Source: an uncultured Bacteroidota bacterium
Lineage (GTDB): Bacteria; Bacteroidota; Bacteroidia; JABEUT01
Reading direction: 5' to 3'
NCBI GenBank assembly: GCA_903863935.1
Contig: CAIPDV010000031.1
Location: 1 to 44,346, forward strand
DNA length: 44,346 bases
Shown piece after piece: positions 23,550-40,745 of the stretch. The position numbers and the translations under genes were made by a program. The notes under the pieces are model-generated. The model searched no databases and was not told where the DNA came from. It saw only the letters and a list, made by a program, of their open reading frames with translations. Numbering within the stretch: the stretch's first letter is position 1; each line of letters begins with the position of its first letter.

Positions 23550-23961
23550 TATATCTAATACAACTATTTTATTTAAATATTCACTAATCAGGTTTCACCA
23601 GAATATTAAATAAAATTTACAACCTACTGTATTCTACGTAATCAATAAGGAGCATTACAAAACACTAAAATATGACATTTTGCAGTTTTTGTTGCAAATG
23701 TCAATTTCTTTTTTAATCATTGCTATTTTATAAAACAAACAAATAACTATCTCATTGTCTTGTGCTTATATAAACCACTAAATTCAAAAACGAATATTAG
23801 ACATCTTACATTTTTTCCGTTTTAAAAGATGCATTAAAATTTTGACAAGAATGTCTTTTTAAAATGCAATATTTCAGTACATTCGACCGCTAGACCCTTA
23901 CCTCTTGAAATTTTCAACTTGCCCTGTTAGCATACCAAACCAAAAAGACTTTACCATTGAT
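23550..23961. other. AT-rich intergenic region upstream of the second giant gene
   Basis: 412 bp with the terminator of the two-component pair in its first half (separate entry). The rest must contain the promoter of the giant gene. I found no perfect TAnnTTTG with a partner box; TACCATTG at 23952-23959 is a seven-of-eight match but lies too close to the ATG. A TTG at 23905 opens the giant frame but would put 19 non-signal residues before the signal peptide. Confidence 0.5.
23673..23716 (+). terminator. Intrinsic terminator of the kinase-regulator pair
   Basis: An 11-bp inverted repeat with one bulged T (23673-23684 and 23693-23703), 8-nt loop, followed by a T-rich tract (23704-23714). It lies 124 bp after the regulator stop. 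Confidence 0.7.
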
Positions 23962-26900
23962 ATGAAATTTACTTTTTATTCTTTCTTATTCTGTGTGCTT
24001 TTTAGCCTGAATTTAAAAGCGCAAAACGGAACCAACGGAACCTCAGGTTCACAAGATCAGAACGGCAGTAAAATTAATTGGTCTATTGACCCTTTTGAAC
24101 ATGCTCTGTTCGTTGAAAATAAGGGTCAGTTCGATACAGTTGACGCCGGTGGAAAAATTTTATTCGAAGCCAAATTAGGTTCTATCAATGCATTTTTCAC
24201 AGCAAAAGGAATTCTTTACAGGCATATTGAAACCGAAAAACTGGATTTCAGTGAGGGGAAAGACCCTGACCAGAATGGAGCTCCAAAACGATTTTTCTAC
24301 TACCTGTCTGCTCAATGGGATGGAGCTAACCCGAACACCAGTATTATTGCAGATGAAGAACAAACATACTATTACACTTATCCCAACGGAACACATAACA
24401 CCTACACGGCTAATGTATTTAAGAAGATCACCTATAAAGATTTGTATCCTGGGATTGACGTAATCTATACATTTAAAAACGGCACCAGTGATTTGGAATA
24501 CACTATTGTGGTTCATCCTGGTGGAGATTTAAGTAAAGTTCACTTGAAGTACGAAAACACAAATGGAATGCAAGTGGATGCTTCGGGAAATGTTACTGTG
24601 AAAAATGATATTGGTATTTTAAAAGAAAGTGCTGCTGTTAGCTATTATCTGGAAAATCATCAACCCGTTACAGTTACCGCTCAGACTAACAATCCGGATG
24701 AATCATTTATTGCCTCTAGCTTAGATGCCACCAAAACTTTAATGATTGATCCTGCAATTGTCTGGACCACCAATCCAAACTTCACTTCCAGTTCAGGCAA
24801 CGACTATGCTTATGATCTGGATTATGATAACCTTGGAAACGTTTATGTTTACGGCGGAGGCCCCTACCCTTTCCAGTTGGTAAAACTAAATTCTGCGGGA
24901 GCCATTCAGTGGACATTTAATGCAACTACCATGAGTTCTTCCACCAATTTCTACGGTGATTTTGCAACCGATAAAAAATCTCTTGAAAACTACATAGTAG
25001 AAGGCTGGAATGCCGGTGGTGGTGCACGTGTACAAAAAATAAGCCCTACTGGTGGCTTGATTGCTACGGATCCCGGCAACTCCGGGTTTAACGAGATGTG
25101 GCGCATTGAATCTACCGTTTGCCCGCAATCATTTGTAATTTTCGGAAATGGAACTTGTTGTCCTGATCAGGCTGCTATGCTTGATACCACCATGACAACA
25201 ATAGTGCCTGCCAATATTCTAGGAGCGACAGTTACCGCAGGGTATCATGATATGGCCCTTACTGCAGCCGACCCAATGGGTGGTTCTGCCTGGACGGCCA
25301 CAACTCAATCGTTGTTATATACTGCAGTATTTAATAATTACCTTGTGAAAGTGCCGCTCCCTGCCCTTGTTCCGAATAATTATGCTGTTGCCGATGGGTA
25401 TACTTTTGCAGAAATCGGAAGTATTTTTTATAGTGCAACAACTACATTCAATGCTATGAATGGTCTCGCCTGCGGGTTAAACTGGGTATATGCATACGAT
25501 GGGCAAACATTGAAAAAATTCAACAAAGCAAGCGGTGCACTTATAACTACAGCTGCCGTATCCGGCACACCATACACTTGGGGTGGCCTTGATGTGGATT
25601 TATGCGACAATATCTATGTAGGAAATAATAACGTAATTGATATTTATAATTCAACAGCACTTACCCGCACCGGAACCTTACCTGCTTTATCAGGTGTTAT
25701 CTATGACTTGGCTGTGGCCCCTTACACTAAACAATTGGTATATGCCTGCGGACAAAACTTTGTTTCTGAAATATCACTTGGCCCACCTCCCGTATCTCCT
25801 ATCACTATCCAAAAAGGTGGTTCCACTTGCGCACCTTGTAGTGGAGTTGCTAAGGCAACGCTTATGCTTTGCGGAAATCCGGATTCAACAAATGTTACTT
25901 ATCGGTGGAGCGATGGAGAAACCACCCGTACTGCAAAAACACTATGTACCGGGGTTGACACTGTAACTATAACTATTGGATGTGATATTATTTTTAAAGA
26001 TACCGTAACCATTAAAACAACCGGTGGTGCACTCACGGTTACTACAACGGAAACCAATGCAACTTGTACTACCCTCGGAACTGCCACTGCCACAGTTACG
26101 GGAGGTTCTGCTCCTTATACGTATTTATGGAATCCTTCTGCCCAAACAACTGCAACAGCTACAGGTTTAAGTGCCGGGACCTATACCATTACAGTAACTG
26201 ATAAAAACGGTTGCCAGGGAACAGCAACGGCGACTATCACGCAACCTACTGTTGTAACAGTTACTGCCACTAACACAAATGAAAAATGTAATGGTGGTAG
26301 TACTGCAACTGCTACTGCAACTGCTACCGGAGGAACTGCTCCATACACCTATGCATGGACCCCAACCGGAGGAACAAATGCAACTGCTACCGGACTATCA
26401 GCAGGGACATACACCATAACAGTGAAAGATAAAAACGGCTGTACGGCAACTGCTAGTGTATCGATTACCCAGCCTCCTCCTATAACGGCAACTATTAGTG
26501 CATCCGCAAATATTTTATGTAATGGCGGAACAACAGGATCAGCTACTGTTACTGCCGGAGGTGGTAATGCTCCTTATACTTATTTGTGGAATCCGGGCGG
26601 AAATACAAATGCAAATGCTACTGGTCTGTCAGCTACCAGTTATACTGTAACAGTAACTGATAATAATGGTTGCACCGCAACAGCAACGGTCACTTTAACA
26701 CAACCTCCTTTATTAACTGCCACTATGGGCGTTCCCACGAATGTTTTGTGTAATGGAGGCAACAATGGTTCAGCCATGGTAACTGCTGCGGGTGGAACTC
26801 CTGCGTATACATATGCATGGGCACCTGCCGGTGGAACAAATGCAAATGGAACTGGACTTAGTGCAGGAAATTATACTGTGACTGTGACGGATCATAACGG

Positions 26901-29900
26901 GTGTACTGCTACTGCTTCCGTTACAATTACACAACCTCCACTCTTAACTGCCACTATGGGTATTCCTACCAATGTGTTATGTAATGGTGGAAGCACAGGT
27001 TCGGCAACAGTTACTGCGGCTGGTGGAACTCCTGCATATACGTATGCCTGGACTCCAGCAGGGGGAACAAATGCCAATGCGACAGGACTAAGTGCAGGCA
27101 CCTATACAGTTACAATCACTGACAAAAATGGATGTACTGCTACTTCAACTGTAACAATTACACAACCTGCGCCAATCACTCTCACTACAACAATAACTCC
27201 GGCAACGTGTGGAAATAATAATGGTTCTGCTACGGTTACAATTATTGGTGGAACTCCTGTATATACCTATTTATGGAGCCCATCTGCAAGTACAACTGCA
27301 ACTGCAACGGGATTAAGTGCAGGGACATATACTATCACAGTTACGGATAAAAATGGGTGCACACAAACTTCAACAGCAATTGTTACCTCTCCGTCAAATG
27401 TTACGGCAACTATTACAGCAAGCACTAATATATTATGTAATGGTGGCTCAACAGGCTTAGCAATAGTTACCGCTGCGGGTGGAACTGCCCCTTATACCTA
27501 TTTATGGAATCCCTCAGGACAAACTACCGCTACCGCAACCGGTTTGTCGGCATTAACCTACACTGTTACCGTTACAGATAATACCGGTTGTTCAACAACA
27601 GCCACAGTAACTTTAACCCAACCTCCTTTATTAACCGCCACAATTGGTGCTTCTACTAACGTTTTATGTAATGGCGGGAACAATGGCTCGGCTACAGTTA
27701 AGGCTGGTGGCGGAAGTCCAAACTATGCCTATACTTGGGCTCCAAATGGTGGCAACGGCGCAACTGGAACCGGAATGACAGCAGGTTCATATACGGTAAC
27801 AGTTACCGATGCTAATGGTTGTACTGCTACTGCTCCCGTTACGATAACTCAACCTCCATTACTTACAGCAACAATTGGTGCAACTACAAATGTTTTATGT
27901 AATGGTGGAAGTACGGGTTCTTCTACTGTTACAGCTGCAGGCGGAAGTCCTGTATATACCTATTCTTGGACTCCCTCCGGTGGTACTAGCACGAATGCAA
28001 CAGGATTAAGTGCCGGGACATATACAATAACAATTACTGATATTAATGGATGTACATCAACTGCCTCTGTAATAATCACGCAACCAACGGCAATAACCCT
28101 AACAACGGCAACCACTCAATCTACCTGTGGTAATAATAATGGAACTGCTACGGTTACTGCTATTGGAGGCACTCCTGCTTACACCTATTTATGGACACCT
28201 TCGGCGAGCACAACAGCAACGGCTACCGGTTTAAGTGTAGGTACATATACCATTATTGTTACAGATAATAATGGATGTACACAAACGTCAACAGCTATCG
28301 TTACATCTCCATCAAATGTAACTGCAACTATTACAGCAAGCACAAATATATTATGTAATGGAGGAACTACAGGATCTGCTACTGTAACCTCTGCTGGTGG
28401 AACTGCTCCTTACACCTATTTATGGACTCCTTCGGGCCAAACGAATACTACAGCAACGGGGTTATCCGCCGGAACTTATACTGTAACGGTAACCGACAAT
28501 ACGGGTTGTAATGTGGTTGCAACAGTAACCTTAACTGAACCTCCATTATTAACGGCGATAATGGGTGCGCCTACTAATGTTTTATGTAACGGAGGAAATA
28601 ACGGAAACGTTATGGTTACTGCCGGAGGCGGAACTCCCGGATATACATATGTATGGGCTCCGTCCGGTGGAAACACAGCAACGGGAACTGGTCTGAGTGC
28701 AGGAACCTATACTGTAACTGTTACAGATAATAATGGTTGTACCGCAACAGCATCTGTTACAATAACTGAACCAACATTATTAACTGCCACAATGGGCGTT
28801 CCAACGAATGTTTCCTGCAATGCAGGAAGCGATGGTTCTGTTACGGTGACTGCAGGTGGCGGAACTCCTGTATATACCTATGCATGGACTCCATCAGGCG
28901 GAACAAATGCTAATGCAACAGGATTAAGTGCAAATTCATACACTATTACCATAACCGACAATAATGGATGTACAGCTACCGCAACTGTAACAATAACTCA
29001 GCCCACGGCAATAACACTTACCACAACAACAACCCAATCAACATGCGGTAATAATAATGGAACCGCAACGGTTACAGCTTTAGGTGGCACTCCGGCGTAT
29101 ACTTATTTGTGGACTCCATCTGCAAATACCAATTCAACAGCCACGGGTTTAAGTGTTGGAACCTATACCATTTTAGTAACCGATAATAACGGATGTACTC
29201 AAACAACAACAGCAATTGTTTCATCTCCTTCTTCTGTTAGCGCAAGCATAACAGCCAGCACAAATATTTTGTGTAATGGCGGTGCAACAGGATCGGCAAC
29301 AGTTACCGCTACTGGCGGAACAGCACCTTACACTTATTTATGGAATCCTTCCGGCCAAACAAATGCAACAGCCACGGGATTATCAGCAGGAGCTTATACA
29401 GTAACAGTTACCGATAATAACGGCTGTAGTGTTGTAGCAAATGTGACGTTAACGGAACCACCACTTCTTACTGCCACAATGGGTATTCCTATCAATGTAT
29501 TATGTAACGGAGGAACCAATGGCTCTGCAACTATTACAGCAGGTGGCGGAACTCCAAACTATACTTATGCTTGGGCTCCAACCGGTGGAAATGGTGCAAC
29601 AGGAACCGGACTTAGTGCAGGTATATATACAGTTACGGTAACCGACGTTAATGGATGTACTGCAACTGCACCTGTTACTATTACACAACCTACCGCGCTT
29701 ACTGCTTTAATTTCAGCGACCGTAAATATTACCTGTTCCGGATTGTCTGATGGAAGTCTTGCAGTAACTGCCGCAGGCGGAACCGCTCCATATACATACG
29801 CATGGACTCCATCCGGTGGAACAGCAGCAATAGCATCTGCTTTAAGTGCCGGAACATATACCATAAACATAATTGATAACAACGGATGTACTGCATCTGC

Positions 29901-31413
29901 AGTTGGATCGATTACTCAACCTACTGCAATTAGTGTTACACTTGCTTCAACAAATGTACCTTGCTTCGGAACATCCAACGGCAGCATTATAGCATCACCT
30001 TCAGGAGGCACGGCACCTTATACCTATGCCTGGATTCCATCGGGAGGAACTACAGCTACTGCTTCTAATCTTTCAGCTGGAACTTATACTGTGACACTAA
30101 CTGATGCCAATGGGTGCTCAACAACTGCATCTGCAACGTTAACGGAACCAACTCCTCTTGTAGTTAGTGCATCGGGCCCTCAATTAGTTTGTTCAGGAAA
30201 TAAAGCAACTTTAAATGCAACTGTTTCAGGTGGAACACCAACTTATACTTATGCATGGAGCTCAGGTGGCACTTCTTCTACAACCTTTGTTAACCCCGTT
30301 AACACTACCACTTACACCGTTGTAATTACAGATGCAAATGGATGTACGGCAACAGCAACAGTTACTGTTGGAACAAATCCTCCATTGAATGTAATTATTA
30401 CGGGTGCTACATCATTCTGTCCGGGAGGCTCAACAACACTTTCTGCAACACCTGCCGGCGGAGATGGCATTTATACATTCCTATGGTTACCGGGTGGCAG
30501 CACAACCCAATCTATCACAGTAGCACCAACTTCAACAACAACCTATACTGTTGAACTTACCGATGATTGCGGCTCTAACATGGCAACTGCACAGGCAACT
30601 GTAACCATAAATCCTTTACCTGTTAGTACTTTTCAGGCTAATCCTGTTTCAGGATGCGCACCATTATGCGTTCAGTTCCGCGATATGTCAACTATTTCCA
30701 GCGGAAATATTTCAAATTGGGAATGGACCTTCGGAAACAATGATACATCCAGCGTACGCAACCCGATTTACTGTTACCCTGATACCGGAACATTTAGCGT
30801 TAGCCTGACTACAACATCCAATAATGGTTGTAGCAGTACATTGAAAATTTTAAATATGGTTACCGTTTATTCCAAACCAAATGCAAGTTTCACATATGCT
30901 CCACAACCGGTGGATATGTTAAACCCGACAGTACAATTTACATATAACGGGAACAGCAAATATCCATTAGCATATTGGGACTGGACTTTTGGTGATGGAA
31001 AAGATTCTACAAGCGGACTGATGAATCCAATTCACACCTATAGTGATACCGGAACATTCTGCGCTTCATTGGTAGTAATGGATTCTCATGGTTGCGTTGA
31101 CACTGCTACGAATTGTATTGTTGTTGGGCCTGATTTCACATTCTATATTCCTGACGCGTTCTCACCTAACGATGATGGTATTAATGACGTTTTCCTTCCA
31201 AAAGGAAACTACATAAAGGATTTCGAAATGTATATTTTTGACCGTTGGGGAATGAAACTTTTCTACTCCGGCAGTTTGAGTGACGGATGGAATGGAAAGG
31301 TTGGAAATCATTCTACCGTTTGCCAGGAAGACACCTATGTTTACCTAATAAACGTTACTGACACCAGAGGAAACAAACATTCTTATACAGGTAAAGTGAA
31401 TTTGGTCAAGTAA
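23962..31413 (+). CDS. Giant SprB-repeat surface protein with propeller-like N-terminus and T9SS type B tail
   Basis: About 2483 aa. Signal peptide (MKFTFYSFLFCVLFSLNLKA|Q). Residues about 35-270 resemble the N-terminal domain found in Bacteroidota SBBP/gliding-type proteins (FVENKGQFD, LYPGIDVIYTFKNG, LEYTIVVHPGGD). Residues about 270-600 look like a beta-propeller-type region (YDLDYDNLGNVYVYGGG, LVKLNSAG, DLCDNIYVGNN). Then 18 SprB repeats (from about 26029), two Ig-like variants, two PKD domains (WTFGNNDTSS, WTFGDGKDS) and a type B sorting tail in the last 92 residues. That tail agrees with the tail of the other giant protein at 74 of 92 positions. It is expected on the cell surface after T9SS export, with an adhesive or gliding-related role inferred from SprB. 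The true start is the ATG before the signal peptide. Confidence 0.92.
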   Translation: MKFTFYSFLFCVLFSLNLKAQNGTNGTSGSQDQNGSKINWSIDPFEHALFVENKGQFDTVDAGGKILFEAKLGSINAFFTAKGILYRHIETEKLDFSEGKDPDQNGAPKRFFYYLSAQWDGANPNTSIIADEEQTYYYTYPNGTHNTYTANVFKKITYKDLYPGIDVIYTFKNGTSDLEYTIVVHPGGDLSKVHLKYENTNGMQVDASGNVTVKNDIGILKESAAVSYYLENHQPVTVTAQTNNPDESFIASSLDATKTLMIDPAIVWTTNPNFTSSSGNDYAYDLDYDNLGNVYVYGGGPYPFQLVKLNSAGAIQWTFNATTMSSSTNFYGDFATDKKSLENYIVEGWNAGGGARVQKISPTGGLIATDPGNSGFNEMWRIESTVCPQSFVIFGNGTCCPDQAAMLDTTMTTIVPANILGATVTAGYHDMALTAADPMGGSAWTATTQSLLYTAVFNNYLVKVPLPALVPNNYAVADGYTFAEIGSIFYSATTTFNAMNGLACGLNWVYAYDGQTLKKFNKASGALITTAAVSGTPYTWGGLDVDLCDNIYVGNNNVIDIYNSTALTRTGTLPALSGVIYDLAVAPYTKQLVYACGQNFVSEISLGPPPVSPITIQKGGSTCAPCSGVAKATLMLCGNPDSTNVTYRWSDGETTRTAKTLCTGVDTVTITIGCDIIFKDTVTIKTTGGALTVTTTETNATCTTLGTATATVTGGSAPYTYLWNPSAQTTATATGLSAGTYTITVTDKNGCQGTATATITQPTVVTVTATNTNEKCNGGSTATATATATGGTAPYTYAWTPTGGTNATATGLSAGTYTITVKDKNGCTATASVSITQPPPITATISASANILCNGGTTGSATVTAGGGNAPYTYLWNPGGNTNANATGLSATSYTVTVTDNNGCTATATVTLTQPPLLTATMGVPTNVLCNGGNNGSAMVTAAGGTPAYTYAWAPAGGTNANGTGLSAGNYTVTVTDHNGCTATASVTITQPPLLTATMGIPTNVLCNGGSTGSATVTAAGGTPAYTYAWTPAGGTNANATGLSAGTYTVTITDKNGCTATSTVTITQPAPITLTTTITPATCGNNNGSATVTIIGGTPVYTYLWSPSASTTATATGLSAGTYTITVTDKNGCTQTSTAIVTSPSNVTATITASTNILCNGGSTGLAIVTAAGGTAPYTYLWNPSGQTTATATGLSALTYTVTVTDNTGCSTTATVTLTQPPLLTATIGASTNVLCNGGNNGSATVKAGGGSPNYAYTWAPNGGNGATGTGMTAGSYTVTVTDANGCTATAPVTITQPPLLTATIGATTNVLCNGGSTGSSTVTAAGGSPVYTYSWTPSGGTSTNATGLSAGTYTITITDINGCTSTASVIITQPTAITLTTATTQSTCGNNNGTATVTAIGGTPAYTYLWTPSASTTATATGLSVGTYTIIVTDNNGCTQTSTAIVTSPSNVTATITASTNILCNGGTTGSATVTSAGGTAPYTYLWTPSGQTNTTATGLSAGTYTVTVTDNTGCNVVATVTLTEPPLLTAIMGAPTNVLCNGGNNGNVMVTAGGGTPGYTYVWAPSGGNTATGTGLSAGTYTVTVTDNNGCTATASVTITEPTLLTATMGVPTNVSCNAGSDGSVTVTAGGGTPVYTYAWTPSGGTNANATGLSANSYTITITDNNGCTATATVTITQPTAITLTTTTTQSTCGNNNGTATVTALGGTPAYTYLWTPSANTNSTATGLSVGTYTILVTDNNGCTQTTTAIVSSPSSVSASITASTNILCNGGATGSATVTATGGTAPYTYLWNPSGQTNATATGLSAGAYTVTVTDNNGCSVVANVTLTEPPLLTATMGIPINVLCNGGTNGSATITAGGGTPNYTYAWAPTGGNGATGTGLSAGIYTVTVTDVNGCTATAPVTITQPTALTALISATVNITCSGLSDGSLAVTAAGGTAPYTYAWTPSGGTAAIASALSAGTYTINIIDNNGCTASAVGSITQPTAISVTLASTNVPCFGTSNGSIIASPSGGTAPYTYAWIPSGGTTATASNLSAGTYTVTLTDANGCSTTASATLTEPTPLVVSASGPQLVCSGNKATLNATVSGGTPTYTYAWSSGGTSSTTFVNPVNTTTYTVVITDANGCTATATVTVGTNPPLNVIITGATSFCPGGSTTLSATPAGGDGIYTFLWLPGGSTTQSITVAPTSTTTYTVELTDDCGSNMATAQATVTINPLPVSTFQANPVSGCAPLCVQFRDMSTISSGNISNWEWTFGNNDTSSVRNPIYCYPDTGTFSVSLTTTSNNGCSSTLKILNMVTVYSKPNASFTYAPQPVDMLNPTVQFTYNGNSKYPLAYWDWTFGDGKDSTSGLMNPIHTYSDTGTFCASLVVMDSHGCVDTATNCIVVGPDFTFYIPDAFSPNDDGINDVFLPKGNYIKDFEMYIFDRWGMKLFYSGSLSDGWNGKVGNHSTVCQEDTYVYLINVTDTRGNKHSYTGKVNLVK
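26029..30140 (+). repeat. SprB repeat array with 918-bp higher-order period (second giant gene)
   Basis: Eighteen coding repeats of 225-231 bp. Units 6, 10 and 14 carry the variant CGNNNG; their Cys codons start at 27208, 28126 and 29044, exactly 918 bp apart each time. The unit after each variant always starts with an ASTNILCNGG type, as in the first giant protein. Each SprB unit keeps two cysteines (CNGG and NGC). Synonymous codon use differs strongly between units. Confidence 0.88.
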
Positions 31414-32307: not shown

Positions 32308-33357
32308 TTAAAAATACGTTTTCACAGCAAACTCAAATTGATCGATAAAAATCTTCTTGAACGCGCTTATATTATTCTGCTCATAAAAAATAAGCATGGC
32401 TTTCTTGTAATCAATTGAATCAACCGTTCTGAAAGAAATGGGACAATAGTTATTATTCATCAATATCGCATTACTGACGATTCTGCCGGTTCTTTTATTA
32501 CCGTCGGCAAATGCCTGTATGTATGAGAGCAGGACTAAAACAAGCAGTGCCTTTGCAAAAATATTTTCTTGCCGGTTTACTAATGCGCACAGCCCCTTGA
32601 GAGCTTCCCTTATTTGAAATTCGTTATCCAGCGGTTTATAATTGGTTCCTGATATGCCCACCCTCCGTTTTCTGATGTTGCGGTCAATGCCCAAATCTTT
32701 TACCAGGATGCTGTGGATGTCTTCAATGCCTGCTACCGTCAACGGTTTTACATATTTTGGGTGTGCAATGATAAAATCTAGGGCTGCTTTATGGTTCAAA
32801 AGCATGGTTGCTTCGTCTTTCGTTTTTCCCGAAGCCGTTTCTTTCTCTTTTAACAATCGTTCCGTTTCCAATAAAGAATAGGTGTTCCCCTCGATTTGCG
32901 AGGACTTCCAACTCAGGTCTATGGCGAGGCGTTCCAGTTCCTTCTTGTATTCGGTTTTCGAGAGTTTAGAAATGTTTGCTTTAAATTGGGATTGGAGGTT
33001 TGTCAGATGTTTCAACTCCTCCATGGTAAAGAGGGTCGCCTTGCTTAAAGTTTCCTCTATAAGGGTATGATTAAAACCCTCGTTGATTTCTCTTTCATCG
33101 ACTTCCTTCTGAAAATACTCTTCAACATCAATGGGGCGAATGAGTTCGTAGGCCTGGCTGATCTTGTATTTGGTGCTCTTTCCCCTGCCCGAGGCAACTA
33201 CCAGGTTCCCGGCCATCAGCTGCTGTATCGTTCTTTTTATCGTGGCGTATGCAAAATCATGTCCGAGCCCGTCATGAATTTCTTTGGATGAACAAAGGGG
33301 GTTTCGCTTGATGAAATCAAGAACTAAATCGCCGTAATCTTTCTTTGGCCTTGGCAT
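32308..33357 (-). CDS. Winged-helix Fic family protein with catalytic His replaced by Gln
   Basis: 349 aa. N-terminal winged helix about 1-70 (VLDFIKRNPLCSSKEIHDGL), linker, and a Fic domain about 115-345. An inhibitory-helix motif is present before the Fic core (S152-SQI-E156-G-N, the [S/T]xxxE[G/N] pattern of class II Fic). The core motif reads QAFADGNKRTGR at 281-292: phosphate-binding DGNKRxxR is intact but the catalytic His of HxFx(D/E)GN is Gln281 (codon CAG). Fic enzymes transfer AMP or related groups from nucleotides and need that His as base, so AMPylation would be lost or changed. I recall related Fic proteins with LQAF-type cores, so this may be a subfamily trait. The winged helix and the operator-like array upstream suggest autoregulation. 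Confidence 0.9.
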   Translation of the reverse strand: MPRPKKDYGDLVLDFIKRNPLCSSKEIHDGLGHDFAYATIKRTIQQLMAGNLVVASGRGKSTKYKISQAYELIRPIDVEEYFQKEVDEREINEGFNHTLIEETLSKATLFTMEELKHLTNLQSQFKANISKLSKTEYKKELERLAIDLSWKSSQIEGNTYSLLETERLLKEKETASGKTKDEATMLLNHKAALDFIIAHPKYVKPLTVAGIEDIHSILVKDLGIDRNIRKRRVGISGTNYKPLDNEFQIREALKGLCALVNRQENIFAKALLVLVLLSYIQAFADGNKRTGRIVSNAILMNNNYCPISFRTVDSIDYKKAMLIFYEQNNISAFKKIFIDQFEFAVKTYF

Positions 33358-33371
33358 CGTTGTTTATTTGT

Positions 33372-33446
33372 AGCTCACAAATATACGAATTGTGGCTCAA
33401 ATACTACCAGTAATGAGCCGTATTTTATAGTTTATTGAGCTCAATA
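33372..33446. promoter_or_regulatory. Promoter and phased operator-like array of the Fic gene
   Basis: The -7 box TATATTTG lies on the minus strand at 33385 to 33378, predicting a start near 33371, 14 nt before the ATG. Around it are four RGCTCA half-sites: AGCTCA 33372-33377, GGCTCA 33394-33399, TGAGCC 33414-33419 and, within a perfect 14-bp palindrome at 33433-33446, TGAGCTCA 33436-33443. Successive sites are 20-22 bp apart, about two helical turns, so they face the same side of the DNA. Confidence 0.6.
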
Positions 33447-36489: not shown

Positions 36490-37374
36490 CTATTCCTTTG
36501 TTTGCAAAACTCGTTCTAAATCATCCAAGTTTTTTAACCACTTCGCTTTGCCAGGCAATTTAATTTTAGCAAGAATTTCAGGCTTACCAGAAATAAAAAT
36601 TTCAGACTTGGAAAAGAGCCTATTAATTTTGTTTAAGTAATCCTGGTTTTCTTCGGCTTGCTGCGTTGTAGTTACAAAAACCAATATTTTTGCAGGATGC
36701 CAGCTTTTAGATACACTCACAGCATCTTCCATCGGAACATTTTGCCCAAGGTAAATAACAGGGTTTCTGCTTGATTTAATAAGGTAATGTGCCGTTAACA
36801 AACCGATTTCATGAAATTCGCCTTCAGGCAGAAATAACATGAATTTACTTTTTGACTTATCCGGCGGCAGTTGGGAATCGATGGCAGTTATTATCTTTTG
36901 CCTTATTAAATTGGAAACAAAATGCTCCTGTGCAGGATTTATTTTCCCAATTGACCAGAATAAACCGACTTTTTCCAGTAATGGGTAGATGAGTTTTACT
37001 AAAGTATTTTTGAAGCCGATCCCAAGCAAGGAAGACGAGAATATCTTTTCAAACATTTCCTCATCCATCTCTATCATTGAAATAACAAGCCCATTTAACT
37101 TATCATCCAAAAATGAATTGGAATTGATTTCCAAGTCTTGCAAGTAGGTGTTTAGTTCTTCTATTTTAAGTTTACTGATTTTGGAAATTTTAAAACCTTT
37201 CTTAAGTAGTAAAGCAACATTCAATAGGCGCTTTAATTGTGCATCATCATAAATGCGAATATTGGTCCTGGTTCGTTTTGGGTGAAGTAATCCATAGCGA
37301 ACTTCCCAAATACGGATGGTATGGGCCTTTATTCCCGACAGTTTTTCTAATTCTTTAATAGAATAGTTACCCAA
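36490..37374 (-). CDS. MerR-type regulator with cobalamin-binding domain (CarH/LitR-like photoreceptor)
   Basis: 294 aa. MerR winged helix 1-70 (YSIKELEKLSGIKAHTIRIW, YGLLHPKRT), a helical bundle about 90-165, and a Rossmann B12-binding domain about 176-290. The light-sensing signature is complete: W140, nine residues, then E150-H151, and G185-EFH188-EIG with H188 as lower axial ligand; YLGQNVP follows. In Thermus CarH the matching residues are W131, E141-H142 and H177. The known mechanism is that AdoB12 in the dark makes a DNA-binding tetramer, and light breaks it apart and frees the promoter. It is divergent from the folE-crt operon, its probable target, and has its own -7 box TATATTTG (37415 to 37408). 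Confidence 0.92.
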   Translation of the reverse strand: MGNYSIKELEKLSGIKAHTIRIWEVRYGLLHPKRTRTNIRIYDDAQLKRLLNVALLLKKGFKISKISKLKIEELNTYLQDLEINSNSFLDDKLNGLVISMIEMDEEMFEKIFSSSLLGIGFKNTLVKLIYPLLEKVGLFWSIGKINPAQEHFVSNLIRQKIITAIDSQLPPDKSKSKFMLFLPEGEFHEIGLLTAHYLIKSSRNPVIYLGQNVPMEDAVSVSKSWHPAKILVFVTTTQQAEENQDYLNKINRLFSKSEIFISGKPEILAKIKLPGKAKWLKNLDDLERVLQTKE

Positions 37375-37407
37375 GTTATAATTTTTAGTGAATGTTTAAT
37401 GATGCGG

Positions 37408-37415
37408 CAAATATA
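37408..37415 (-). promoter_or_regulatory. -7 element of the MerR-B12 gene
   Basis: A perfect TATATTTG on the minus strand predicts a start near 37401 and a 27-nt leader. No -33 box is seen at normal spacing. A short hairpin (37465-37470 and 37478-37483, loop 7, then five T) lies further out in the divergent region; its role is unclear. Confidence 0.5.
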
Positions 37416-37570
37416 TTGAACAATTTAATATAGTTTATTTGATAACTCCAGTAGATTATTGATTGCCTGATAAGAATTCAGGCTTTTTAGAATTGAATCA
37501 TTTTAATGCTGAAAACGATACCCCTCACTTACAGGATGTTGTATCTGTATTATATTTTGTTTAATCTTTT

Positions 37571-37604
37571 ATATGTTTCTTTAAACAATATGTTTCTATA
37601 TTTG
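37571..37604 (+). promoter_or_regulatory. Promoter with direct-repeat operator candidate for the folE-crt operon
   Basis: TTTC (37576-37579), 17-nt spacer, TATATTTG (37597-37604), start near 37611 and 48-nt leader to folE. A 10-bp direct repeat ATATGTTTCT occurs at 37571-37580 and 37588-37597, covering the -33 box and touching the -7 box. A repressor bound there would block polymerase, as expected for a CarH-like regulator. Confidence 0.55.
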
Positions 37605-37658
37605 TATTCCCAAATGAAAATATGATTGTACTTCTGAACAATTGCAATCCCTTAAACG

Positions 37659-38378
37659 ATGAAAACTAAAGAAATTTCTTTGAATAACCTGATTAACGTA
37701 AATAAGATTTCCTTAAACGAATTAACTATTGAGGAAATAGGCGATGAACAAATTTCAACAGGTATAGAAACGCCGATGAAGCCAACTGCGTTTGATATGA
37801 ACGAAGAAGAAAAAATTGAGAAGATTGAATTTCATTTCAGGGAGATAATGGAAACCCTGGGCCTCGACCTGAATGATGACAGCCTGAAAGGAACACCTAT
37901 GCGGGTTGCCAAAATGTATATTAAGGAATTATACAGTGGCATCAACCCATCCAATAAACCCCAAATCACACTTTTTGAAAACAAGTACAAGTATGACCAG
38001 ATGCTTGTTGAAAAAGAGATTGCTTTCTATAGCAATTGCGAGCATCACTTTGTGCCAATTTTCGGAAAAGCCCATGTCGCCTATATTTCTTCCGGAAAAA
38101 TTATCGGGTTATCCAAACTGAACAGGATAGTAAATTATTACGCCAAACGCCCACAGGTGCAGGAAAGACTGACCGTGCAGATAGCAAAAGAATTGCAGCA
38201 ATGCCTGCAAACAGAAAATGTGGCTGTGCTTATTGATGCCAAACATTTATGTGTTGCCTCGAGAGGGATAAAGGATAACAACTCCTCAACGGTTACTTCT
38301 TATTATGGTGGCAAGTTTCAAGAAGATACTATCCGAAATGAGTTTCTTGCTTATTTGAGCTTAAAGACGAATTACTGA
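37659..38378 (+). CDS. folE: GTP cyclohydrolase I
   Basis: 239 aa. Catalyses GTP to 7,8-dihydroneopterin triphosphate, the first step of tetrahydrofolate and other pterins. The zinc site is present (C127 and H130 in SNCEHH, C198 in KHLCVASRG), and KRPQVQERLT and TPMRVAKMY are family blocks. The N-terminal 45 residues are an unusual extension; a later ATG at residue 47 could be used instead, but the promoter leaves room for the long form. It is the first gene of the carotenoid operon. A folE copy is also part of the LitR light regulon in Pseudomonas, so a light-related pterin role (for example for a photolyase or a hydroxylase) is plausible; this is inference. Confidence 0.93.
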   Translation: MKTKEISLNNLINVNKISLNELTIEEIGDEQISTGIETPMKPTAFDMNEEEKIEKIEFHFREIMETLGLDLNDDSLKGTPMRVAKMYIKELYSGINPSNKPQITLFENKYKYDQMLVEKEIAFYSNCEHHFVPIFGKAHVAYISSGKIIGLSKLNRIVNYYAKRPQVQERLTVQIAKELQQCLQTENVAVLIDAKHLCVASRGIKDNNSSTVTSYYGGKFQEDTIRNEFLAYLSLKTNY

Positions 38379-38431
38379 AACAGGATCCTGAAATAATTGC
38401 CAAAACAACCTTAAATTAATAAGTAGAATAA

Positions 38432-39925
38432 ATGTCCTGCATATCAATAATAGGAAGTGGATTCTCCGGACTTTCTGCCGCATGTTTTGCGGCAAATGCA
38501 GGGTGCGATGTGCAGGTGTTTGAAAAAAATAACATGCCAGGAGGACGAGCCGGTTATTTTAAAGAAGATAGATTTCTTTTTGAATCAGGCCCAAGCTGGT
38601 ATTGGATGCCCGATGTATTCGAGAAATTCTTTAACCAGTTTGGAAAATCGGCAAAAGACTATTACGATTTAGTGCAACTCGACCCCGGATTTCAGATTTT
38701 TTTCAAAGGAAACGATTGCCTTAAAGTACCCGCTTCATTAACAGAACTATATGATGTTTTTGAGAATATTGAGACCGGCAGCGCTGCCAGGCTTAAAAGA
38801 TTTTTAAAAGAAAGCGAACTGAAGTATAACTTGGGGATGCGTGAATTGGTTTACAAACCCGCCTATTCATGGAGAGAATTTGCATGTTATGATGTGCTCA
38901 TAGGTGTCGCAAAATCAAATGTCTTTAAATCATTAAGGAGTTATGTAAGAAGTTTCTTCAATGATGAACGCCTAATTGCTTTAATGGAATTCCCCGTGTT
39001 ATTTCTTGGTGCAATGCCTCAGCAGATTCCGGCTTTATACAGCCTGATGAATTATGCCGCATTGGATATGGGCACCTGGTATCCCATGGGTGGAATGTAT
39101 AAAGTGGTAGATGGAATGCATGAAATTGCTGCTTCTTTAGGAGTTGATTTTTATATGAACAGCGAAATAAAAAAGATAAGCATTTTAGAAGGTAAAGCGG
39201 CAAAACTTCGAACTGCTGACAGGAGTTTTAGAACTGATGCGGTTATAGCTTCTGCCGATTATCACCATGTCGAAAACAACTTACTGGATGAACAATACCG
39301 AAATTACACAGATAAATATTGGGATAAAAAGACGTTGGCGCCTTCGTGCCTGATATTCTTTGTCGGGGTAAATAAGAAAATAAAAAACCTTATTCATCAT
39401 AATCTGTTTTTCGATGCAGACTTTGAAAAACATGCCAACGCTATCTACAAAGGTGCGCAATGGCCCGATAATCCTCTATTCTATGTTTGCTGCCCATCGA
39501 AAACCGATGCCTCAGTAGCTCCGGAAGGAATGGAGAATCTTTTTATCCTTGTGCCGATTGCCCCAGGAATGGAGGACACCGAAAATAGGCGGAATAGTTA
39601 TTTTGATTCCCTGATTAAGCGAATAGAGATTCAATGCAGCGATTCCTTTGCTGATAATATTATTCTTAAAAAAAGTTACTGCATAAATGATTTTGAAAAG
39701 GATTATAATTCCTATAAAGGCAATGCTTATGGGCTTGCAAATACCTTAACTCAAACGGCATTTTTAAAACCTTCAATGCGGAATAAGAAAGTGAAAAATC
39801 TTTTTTATGCAGGACAATTAACCGTTCCGGGACCGGGTGTTCCACCAGCCATAATATCAGGGCAGATAGCAGCTGAACAAGCATTAAAATTTTGCAATAC
39901 TTTGAGTTATGAAAAGTTTATTTGA
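38432..39925 (+). CDS. crtI: Phytoene desaturase (CrtI family)
   Basis: 497 aa, the normal length for CrtI. N-terminal FAD site IGSGFSGLSAACFAANAG with E31 and the NMPGGRAG loop; C-terminal FYAGQLTVPGPGVPPAIISG closes the cofactor site. It converts phytoene to lycopene by successive desaturation at the membrane. It starts 53 bp after folE and overlaps crtB by 17 bp, typical of one operon. A diapophytoene or carotenoid-oxidase variant is possible in the family, but the crtB, crtY and crtZ neighbours favour lycopene formation. Confidence 0.95.
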   Translation: MSCISIIGSGFSGLSAACFAANAGCDVQVFEKNNMPGGRAGYFKEDRFLFESGPSWYWMPDVFEKFFNQFGKSAKDYYDLVQLDPGFQIFFKGNDCLKVPASLTELYDVFENIETGSAARLKRFLKESELKYNLGMRELVYKPAYSWREFACYDVLIGVAKSNVFKSLRSYVRSFFNDERLIALMEFPVLFLGAMPQQIPALYSLMNYAALDMGTWYPMGGMYKVVDGMHEIAASLGVDFYMNSEIKKISILEGKAAKLRTADRSFRTDAVIASADYHHVENNLLDEQYRNYTDKYWDKKTLAPSCLIFFVGVNKKIKNLIHHNLFFDADFEKHANAIYKGAQWPDNPLFYVCCPSKTDASVAPEGMENLFILVPIAPGMEDTENRRNSYFDSLIKRIEIQCSDSFADNIILKKSYCINDFEKDYNSYKGNAYGLANTLTQTAFLKPSMRNKKVKNLFYAGQLTVPGPGVPPAIISGQIAAEQALKFCNTLSYEKFI

Positions 39926-40745
39926 TGAGGTTTCACATACTTGCAGCAAAGTTACCACAAGAGCTTACAGCACGAGTTTTTCTTTAGGGATTTATTGCCT
40001 CCATCGGAAACTGCATACCCCTATTTATAGCATTTATGGTTTTGTTCGCCTGGCTGATGAAATTGTCGACTCTTTTCATCAATACGATAAACCTGCACTG
40101 CTAAAGGAGTTCAAAGATGAAACCGACAAGGCGATAGAGCGTAAAATCAGTTTAAATCCCATTTTGAACAGTTTCCAAGAGGTTGTAAATACTTATGGAA
40201 TTGAACAGGAACTTATCGACAGCTTCCTGAATAGTATGGAGCAGGATTTATATAAAAGCACGCACAACACATATTCCTATACTAAATATATTTTTGGCTC
40301 TGCGGAGGTTGTAGGCCTTATGTGTTTGAGGGTTTTCACACAAAATTCTGAGGATAACTATCAGCGGCTGAAACCTGCTGCCATGAGCCTTGGCTCGGCA
40401 TTTCAAAAAGTGAATTTTTTAAGAGACCTGAAAGCCGATTATCAAACTCTTGGCCGTGTTTATTTTCCGGATGTTGACATGAAACAGTTTTCTGATGCCG
40501 AAAAAGTAAAAATTGAAGAGGATATTGAGAACGACTTTACAGCGGCATTGCAAGGCATAAGGCAACTTCCCGATTCATGCCGGTTCGGTGTTTATGTAGC
40601 GCACGTTTATTATAAAAGCCTGTTCAATAAAATCAAATCGGTATCGCCGGAAGGAGTAATGACAGAGCGGATAAGAGTGCCTAATTATGAGAAGATTAGA
40701 ATGCTTGCCGGTTCATTCTTAAAATACAGGTTAGGTATATTATGA
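39909..40745 (+). CDS. crtB: Phytoene synthase
   Basis: 278 aa. Both Asp-rich metal-binding motifs of the squalene/phytoene synthase family are present: DEIVD at 50-54 and NFLRDLKAD with D173 and D177. YIFGSAEVVGLMCLRVF is the usual central helix. It joins two GGPP to phytoene, the first committed step. It overlaps crtI by 17 bp and the next gene by 4 bp. A GGPP synthase is not in the window. Confidence 0.95.
   Translation: MKSLFDEVSHTCSKVTTRAYSTSFSLGIYCLHRKLHTPIYSIYGFVRLADEIVDSFHQYDKPALLKEFKDETDKAIERKISLNPILNSFQEVVNTYGIEQELIDSFLNSMEQDLYKSTHNTYSYTKYIFGSAEVVGLMCLRVFTQNSEDNYQRLKPAAMSLGSAFQKVNFLRDLKADYQTLGRVYFPDVDMKQFSDAEKVKIEEDIENDFTAALQGIRQLPDSCRFGVYVAHVYYKSLFNKIKSVSPEGVMTERIRVPNYEKIRMLAGSFLKYRLGIL

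What the first reader, a model, noticed from the sequence alone, without database searches (positions are those of the whole stretch)
32515..32550. Fic protein lacking the catalytic histidine but keeping the nucleotide loop and inhibitory motif
The core reads QAFADGNKRTGR with Gln281 in the place of the essential His, while S152xxxE156G inhibition and DGNKRxxR are intact. Either it is a pseudo-enzyme that binds nucleotide as a ligand for its winged helix, or it uses altered chemistry. Only one base separates CAG from a His codon, so error must be excluded; I recall other LQAF-type Fic proteins, which argues for a real subfamily.
Basis: partly seen in the sequence, partly recalled or inferred. 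Interest (0 to 1): 0.6.

Follow-up and report, generated by a model that had tools for sequence, protein, structure and literature searches.

The report
Self-repressing Fic protein without catalytic histidine
A bacterial Fic protein carries glutamine in place of the histidine that normal Fic enzymes need, and this is a real, old subfamily whose members appear to switch off their own gene by binding four repeated DNA sites at its promoter; what the altered Fic domain then does is still unknown and can now be tested.

Summary
The 349-aa ORF at 32308-33357 (-) reads SYIQ281AFADGNKRTGR, with S152xxxE156G157 intact. It is no sequencing error: Gln281 is invariant in 115 of 115 aligned relatives (mostly 61-79% identity across Bacteroidota, about 30% in Proteobacteria, plasmids and viral contigs). 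These form one clade (SH-aLRT 100) apart from His-type Fics. The Gln variant itself was described in silico in 2015 (clade D2, PMC4454073).

The new part is what surrounds it. Most close relatives have four half-sites (>> <<, 22 bp / about 20 bp / 22 bp, starting near -84) upstream of their own gene. At most one mismatch was needed in 38 of 85 loci, against 0 of 406 neighbouring-gene upstreams. Half-site sequence varies between loci in association with the recognition helix and wing (not phylogeny-corrected). A promoter -7 element often sits between sites 3 and 4. In the host genome the array occurs only at this promoter, and no neighbour gene is conserved.

So this is a solitary, mobile, probably self-repressing winged-helix/Fic module. 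The Fic site is altered (His to Gln, Gly to Lys) but strictly conserved, which argues against decay. Whether it senses nucleotide or does other chemistry is undecided. Autorepression 0.9; altered-chemistry effector about 0.5; ligand-sensing pseudo-enzyme about 0.3.

The parts
32308..33357 (-). Q-type winged-helix/Fic protein, 349 aa (stop included)
   Evidence: homologues
33157..33324 (-). N-terminal winged helix-turn-helix (residues 12-67); predicted recognition helix 37-49, wing strands 53-56 and 63-66
   Evidence: Pfam Penicillinase_R sub-threshold; AlphaFold pLDDT about 90; half-site association in columns 37, 38, 41, 58-62
32887..32904 (-). S152xxxE156G157, class II inhibitory motif, invariant in the clade
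   Evidence: low local confidence in both models
32461..32745 (-). Fic core, residues 205-299
   Evidence: structural match to FICD with MgATP
32482..32517 (-). Altered Fic motif Q281AFADGNKRTGR292 (His to Gln, Gly288 to Lys)
33436..33440 (-). Operator half-site 1 (GCTCA, forward)
33414..33418 (-). Operator half-site 2 (GCTCA, forward, 22 bp from site 1)
33395..33399 (-). Operator half-site 3 (TGAGC, inverted)
33373..33377 (-). Operator half-site 4 (TGAGC, inverted, 22 bp from site 3)
33378..33385 (-). TATATTTG, Bacteroidota promoter -7 element between half-sites 3 and 4
   Evidence: TAnnTTTG between sites 3 and 4 in 47 of 81 relatives, chance 0.9%; consensus from PMC7366714

Best explanation
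A single-gene, horizontally mobile module. The N-terminal winged helix binds four half-sites over the gene's own promoter and represses it (inferred from sequence, strongly supported, about 0.9 on its own). The Fic domain keeps the Mg/phosphate-binding loop (D285, N287, R289, R292) and the inhibitory Glu156. It has replaced the general base His with Gln and Gly288 with the Doc-type Lys, so it should not AMPylate by the normal mechanism. I infer that it still binds a nucleotide, perhaps inverted as in Doc, and acts as an effector with altered chemistry (phosphotransfer or Glu156-assisted hydrolysis) once released from self-repression or self-inhibition, in the manner of solitary toxin-like or defence Fics. 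The altered-chemistry step is inference, not shown.
For: Q281, D285, N287, R289, R292, E156 and S152 are invariant in 115 of 115, with clade-specific (near-)invariants Y160, K190, Y279, S308, Y325, E326 and Y348, so the pocket is selected, not decaying. One clade, SH-aLRT 100. Operator: 38/85 at 1 mismatch or fewer, against 0/406 neighbouring-gene upstreams and 0/425 Markov sequences; -7 element between sites 3 and 4 in 47/81; half-site/wHTH association, mean z 2.0 in the wHTH against 0.5 elsewhere. Operator found only at its own promoter in its genome (the other tandem or inverted-pair hits lie inside open frames). No conserved partner gene. Patchy: 16 of 395 genomes of the phylum sample. Precedent: CccR, a Fic toxin with an HTH that represses its own promoter. 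Best fold match FICD with MgATP; the solitary defence Fic model SoFic hits at E 1.1e-18. Doc-type Lys linked to inverted ATP.
Against: No biochemistry exists. In FICD, mutating this His abolishes both AMPylation and deAMPylation (PMC8373988), so His-free chemistry is unproven. The half-site/protein association is not phylogeny-corrected; the independent-pairs test had too few changes to decide. About a quarter of loci lack a clear four-site array by the strict scan. Adjacent genes show only scattered toxin or defence families.
Confidence: 0.5

Rival explanations
1. Pseudo-enzyme sensor: the Fic domain is catalytically dead but binds a nucleotide that changes Glu156 and the dimer arrangement, thereby setting DNA occupancy. 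The output is purely transcriptional, mainly its own gene and perhaps an adjacent gene.
For: All phosphate-contact residues and the inhibitory motif are kept while the general base is lost; clear own-promoter operator. CbFic2 shows that DNA binding and Fic state can be coupled.
Against: The operator occurs only at its own promoter in its genome, and in three other carrier genomes the four-site array occurs only at the Q-Fic gene. There is no conserved neighbour, so a pure regulator has no visible regulon.
Confidence: 0.3
2. Ordinary AMPylase that tolerates Gln in place of His.
For: Rest of the motif intact; Khater and Mohanty cite residual activity of a His-to-Ala Fic mutant and of a His-to-Gln mutant in another enzyme.
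Against: The Gly to Lys change accompanies Gln; the His is essential in FICD for AMPylation and deAMPylation.
Confidence: 0.08
3. Dedicated deAMPylase or phosphodiester hydrolase using Glu156 to position water.
For: Glu156 invariant; Glu234 of FICD positions the hydrolytic water.
Against: FICD deAMPylation also needs the His, proposed as general acid.
Confidence: 0.1
4. Sequencing error or decaying pseudogene.
For: One base separates CAG from a His codon.
Against: Gln in 115 of 115 aligned relatives; intact ORF and pocket.
Confidence: 0.01

Closest known systems
Fic/Doc clade D2 (Khater and Mohanty 2015, PMC4454073), motif Qx[FY]x[DE][GV]NKR
   Same: Same Gln and Lys substitutions; this protein fits the motif.
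   Different: They describe D2 as a Doc sub-clade of usually single-domain proteins, 45 sequences. Here the members have an N-terminal winged helix, a class II inhibitory motif and an own-promoter operator array.
CccR of Yersinia pseudotuberculosis (PMC9755527)
   Same: Fic plus HTH protein that represses its own promoter through inverted repeats.
   Different: CccR has the catalytic His, a C-terminal HTH and two half-sites 26 bp apart; here Gln, an N-terminal wHTH and four half-sites.
CbFic2 of Coxiella burnetii (PMC10628234)
   Same: Class II Fic with a winged HTH; DNA binding coupled to the Fic state.
   Different: Catalytic His present, C-terminal HTH, acts on histone H3.
FICD/HYPE and SoFic class II Fics
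   Same: Best fold and sequence matches; [ST]xxxEG motif N-terminal to the Fic core.
   Different: HPFxxGNGRxxR with catalytic His and Gly; no N-terminal wHTH matching this one.
Doc toxin of phage P1
   Same: Lys at position 8 of the motif (NKR), linked to inverted ATP (PMC4177925).
   Different: Doc keeps the His and is paired with the antitoxin Phd; here there is no partner gene.

Membership tests
Canonical AMPylating Fic (HxFx[DE]GNGRxxR) | Catalytic His | tested here: not met
   Gln in 115 of 115
Canonical AMPylating Fic (HxFx[DE]GNGRxxR) | F, D/E, N, R, R of the loop | tested here: met
   F283, D285, N287, R289, R292 invariant
Canonical AMPylating Fic (HxFx[DE]GNGRxxR) | Gly at position 8 | tested here: not met
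   Lys288
Canonical AMPylating Fic (HxFx[DE]GNGRxxR) | AMP transfer | not testable with these tools
   needs an enzyme assay
Class II Fic | [ST]xxxE[GN] N-terminal to the Fic core | tested here: met
   S152, E156, G157 invariant
Class II Fic | Inhibitory helix packed in the active site | tested here: inconclusive
   Residues around 150-160 have pLDDT below 50 in both models
Doc kinases | Lys at motif position 8 | tested here: met
   K288
Doc kinases | Catalytic His | tested here: not met
   Q281
Doc kinases | Operon with a Phd-type antitoxin | tested here: not met
   no conserved neighbour among 87 loci
Clade D2 of Khater and Mohanty | Qx[FY]x[DE][GV]NKR motif | tested here: met
Clade D2 of Khater and Mohanty | Position in their tree | not tested
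   their sequence set was not available
CccR-like self-repressing HTH-Fic | HTH domain | tested here: met
   N-terminal wHTH, weak Pfam match and confident model; in CccR it is C-terminal
CccR-like self-repressing HTH-Fic | Inverted repeats at own promoter | tested here: met
CccR-like self-repressing HTH-Fic | Demonstrated repression | not testable with these tools
   needs a reporter or EMSA

The most novel reading that the evidence does not exclude
An ancient, mobile, one-gene Fic module that uses His-free chemistry in a retailored pocket (Q281, K288, E156 and clade-specific Y160, K190, Y279, S308, Y325, E326), and that controls itself by co-operative binding to a four-site operator whose specificity has diversified among copies.
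Probability: 0.4. Interest if true: 0.75.

Novelty: new variant of a known kind. Interest (0 to 1): 0.52.

Why it matters
The Gln-type Fics were flagged in 2015 as possibly not dead but of unknown function, and I found no later experiment in the papers searched. This work gives them a clear architecture, a predicted regulatory circuit with exact DNA sites, and a list of clade-specific active-site residues, so both the DNA-binding and the catalytic question become directly testable. A Fic that works without its histidine, or one turned into a nucleotide-dependent repressor, would each widen what the fold is known to do.

Tried and rejected
Sequencing error: rejected. Relocated catalytic His: H189 and H215 are (nearly) invariant in the clade, but both are also usual in His-type Fics (14/19 and 13/19), so neither is a clade-specific replacement. 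Operon partner or antitoxin: none conserved. Defence-island signal: only scattered hits. Wider regulon: other tandem or inverted-pair sites in the genome lie inside open frames. Phylogeny-corrected covariation: underpowered, one to seven usable pairs. Second AlphaFold run with more diverse rows did not settle the inhibitory helix.

Full report
Observation. The minus-strand ORF 33357-32308 encodes 349 aa. The Fic motif reads Q281AFADGNKRTGR292 and the inhibitory motif S152SQIE156G157 is intact. Pfam gives Fic at residues 205-299 (E 1.4e-13) and a sub-threshold winged helix at 12-109. AlphaFold predicts the winged helix and the Fic core well (mean pLDDT 86, pTM 0.85) and Foldseek matches FICD with MgATP best (E 7.6e-9, TM 0.58).

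A real clade. Searches of species genomes returned 363 relatives of the query, of which the best 80 were fetched; with the search of related genomes, all 87 fetched homologues at 46% identity or more have Gln at 281 and the SSQIEGNTY segment, and His appears only in homologues of about 30% identity or less or in short local matches. About 30% identical proteins on proteobacterial plasmids and in viral contigs also have Gln. In an alignment of 97 close and 18 distant members every one has Gln281; F283, D285, N287, R289, R292, S152, E156 and G157 are invariant; position 288 is Lys in 96 of 97 and 18 of 18; Y160, K190, Y279, S308, Y325, E326 and Y348 are (nearly) invariant in the clade and mostly different in His-type Fics. 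The tree puts the clade on one branch with SH-aLRT 100 (a quick tree with some long outgroup branches). This is the D2 motif of Khater and Mohanty (PMC4454073), who noted the His to Gln change and called the proteins usually single-domain.

Not decay. The strict conservation of the pocket, the clade-specific residues and the spread over phyla argue for selected function. The Lys at motif position 8 is the Doc-type residue linked to inverted ATP binding (PMC4177925). In FICD the His is needed for both AMPylation and deAMPylation (PMC8373988), so normal chemistry is unlikely.

The operator. Reading the 5' regions showed repeated GCTCA/TGAGC elements. A search that did not assume the half-site sequence found a >> << array with 22, about 20 and 22 bp spacing starting near -84. 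With strict geometry, 38 of 85 Q-Fic upstreams fit with at most one mismatch, against 0 of 406 upstreams of neighbouring genes and 0 of 425 Markov sequences; allowing up to three mismatches the counts are 64, 12 and 7. The half-site differs between copies but is coherent within a locus: TATCAATCA in L014, L020, L022 and L034, TATCGCTCA in L025, L031, L060 and L151, TATCTGACA in L068 and L081, CGGTCA in L085. The strongest association with half-site type lies in columns 37, 38 and 41 of the recognition helix and 58-62 of the wing, with scattered columns elsewhere (for example 23 and 85); mean z is 2.0 for residues 12-67 and 0.5 for the rest. This is not corrected for relatedness, and an independent-pairs test had too few changes to decide. 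A TAnnTTTG element lies between sites 3 and 4 in 47 of 81 loci against 0.9% by chance, which fits repression. Several distant members also carry repeated elements upstream (L114, L118, L144-L146, L155, L159), others do not by this test.

No wider regulon, no partner. In the host genome the array occurs once, at this gene; other tandem or inverted-pair hits fall inside open frames. In three other carrier genomes the full array also occurs only at the Q-Fic gene. These searches used exact GCTCA sites and would miss degenerate or single sites. No neighbour gene recurs in more than 5 of 87 loci; adjacent genes include a few HipA, zeta-toxin and Fic genes and scattered defence models. The clade is patchy: 16 of 395 genomes of the phylum sample have a member.

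Reading. The DNA-binding half is well supported as autorepression; CccR is a demonstrated precedent for an HTH-Fic protein that represses its own promoter (PMC9755527), and CbFic2 for coupling DNA binding to the Fic state (PMC10628234). The Fic half is undecided. Because the operator appears at no other gene, I favour an effector with altered chemistry under self-repression over a pure nucleotide-sensing regulator, but only modestly. SoFic, a solitary class II Fic, is a known anti-phage protein (PMC12249575) and its profile matches this protein, which makes a defence-like role a reasonable lead, not a finding.

Noticed in passing
23905-31413 (+): 2502-aa ORF of many tandem SprB-like repeats ending in a gliding-type C-terminal domain (by eye from the translation).
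   Followed up: no
36490-40745: MerR/B12-binding regulator next to GTP cyclohydrolase I, an amine-oxidase-type protein and a squalene/phytoene synthase: looks like a B12-controlled carotenoid cluster.
   Followed up: no
L139, L140 upstream regions: Viral-contig Q-Fic genes carry what look like extended or doubled operator arrays.
   Followed up: no
window 32827-32910 (residues 150-177): The invariant inhibitory segment is the least confidently predicted part of both AlphaFold models although its flanks are well predicted.
   Followed up: partly
L002 and L003 (G000:C19:58616-59278 and G000:C121:107586-108224): Two further Fic genes in the same genome, both with His in the motif.
   Followed up: partly
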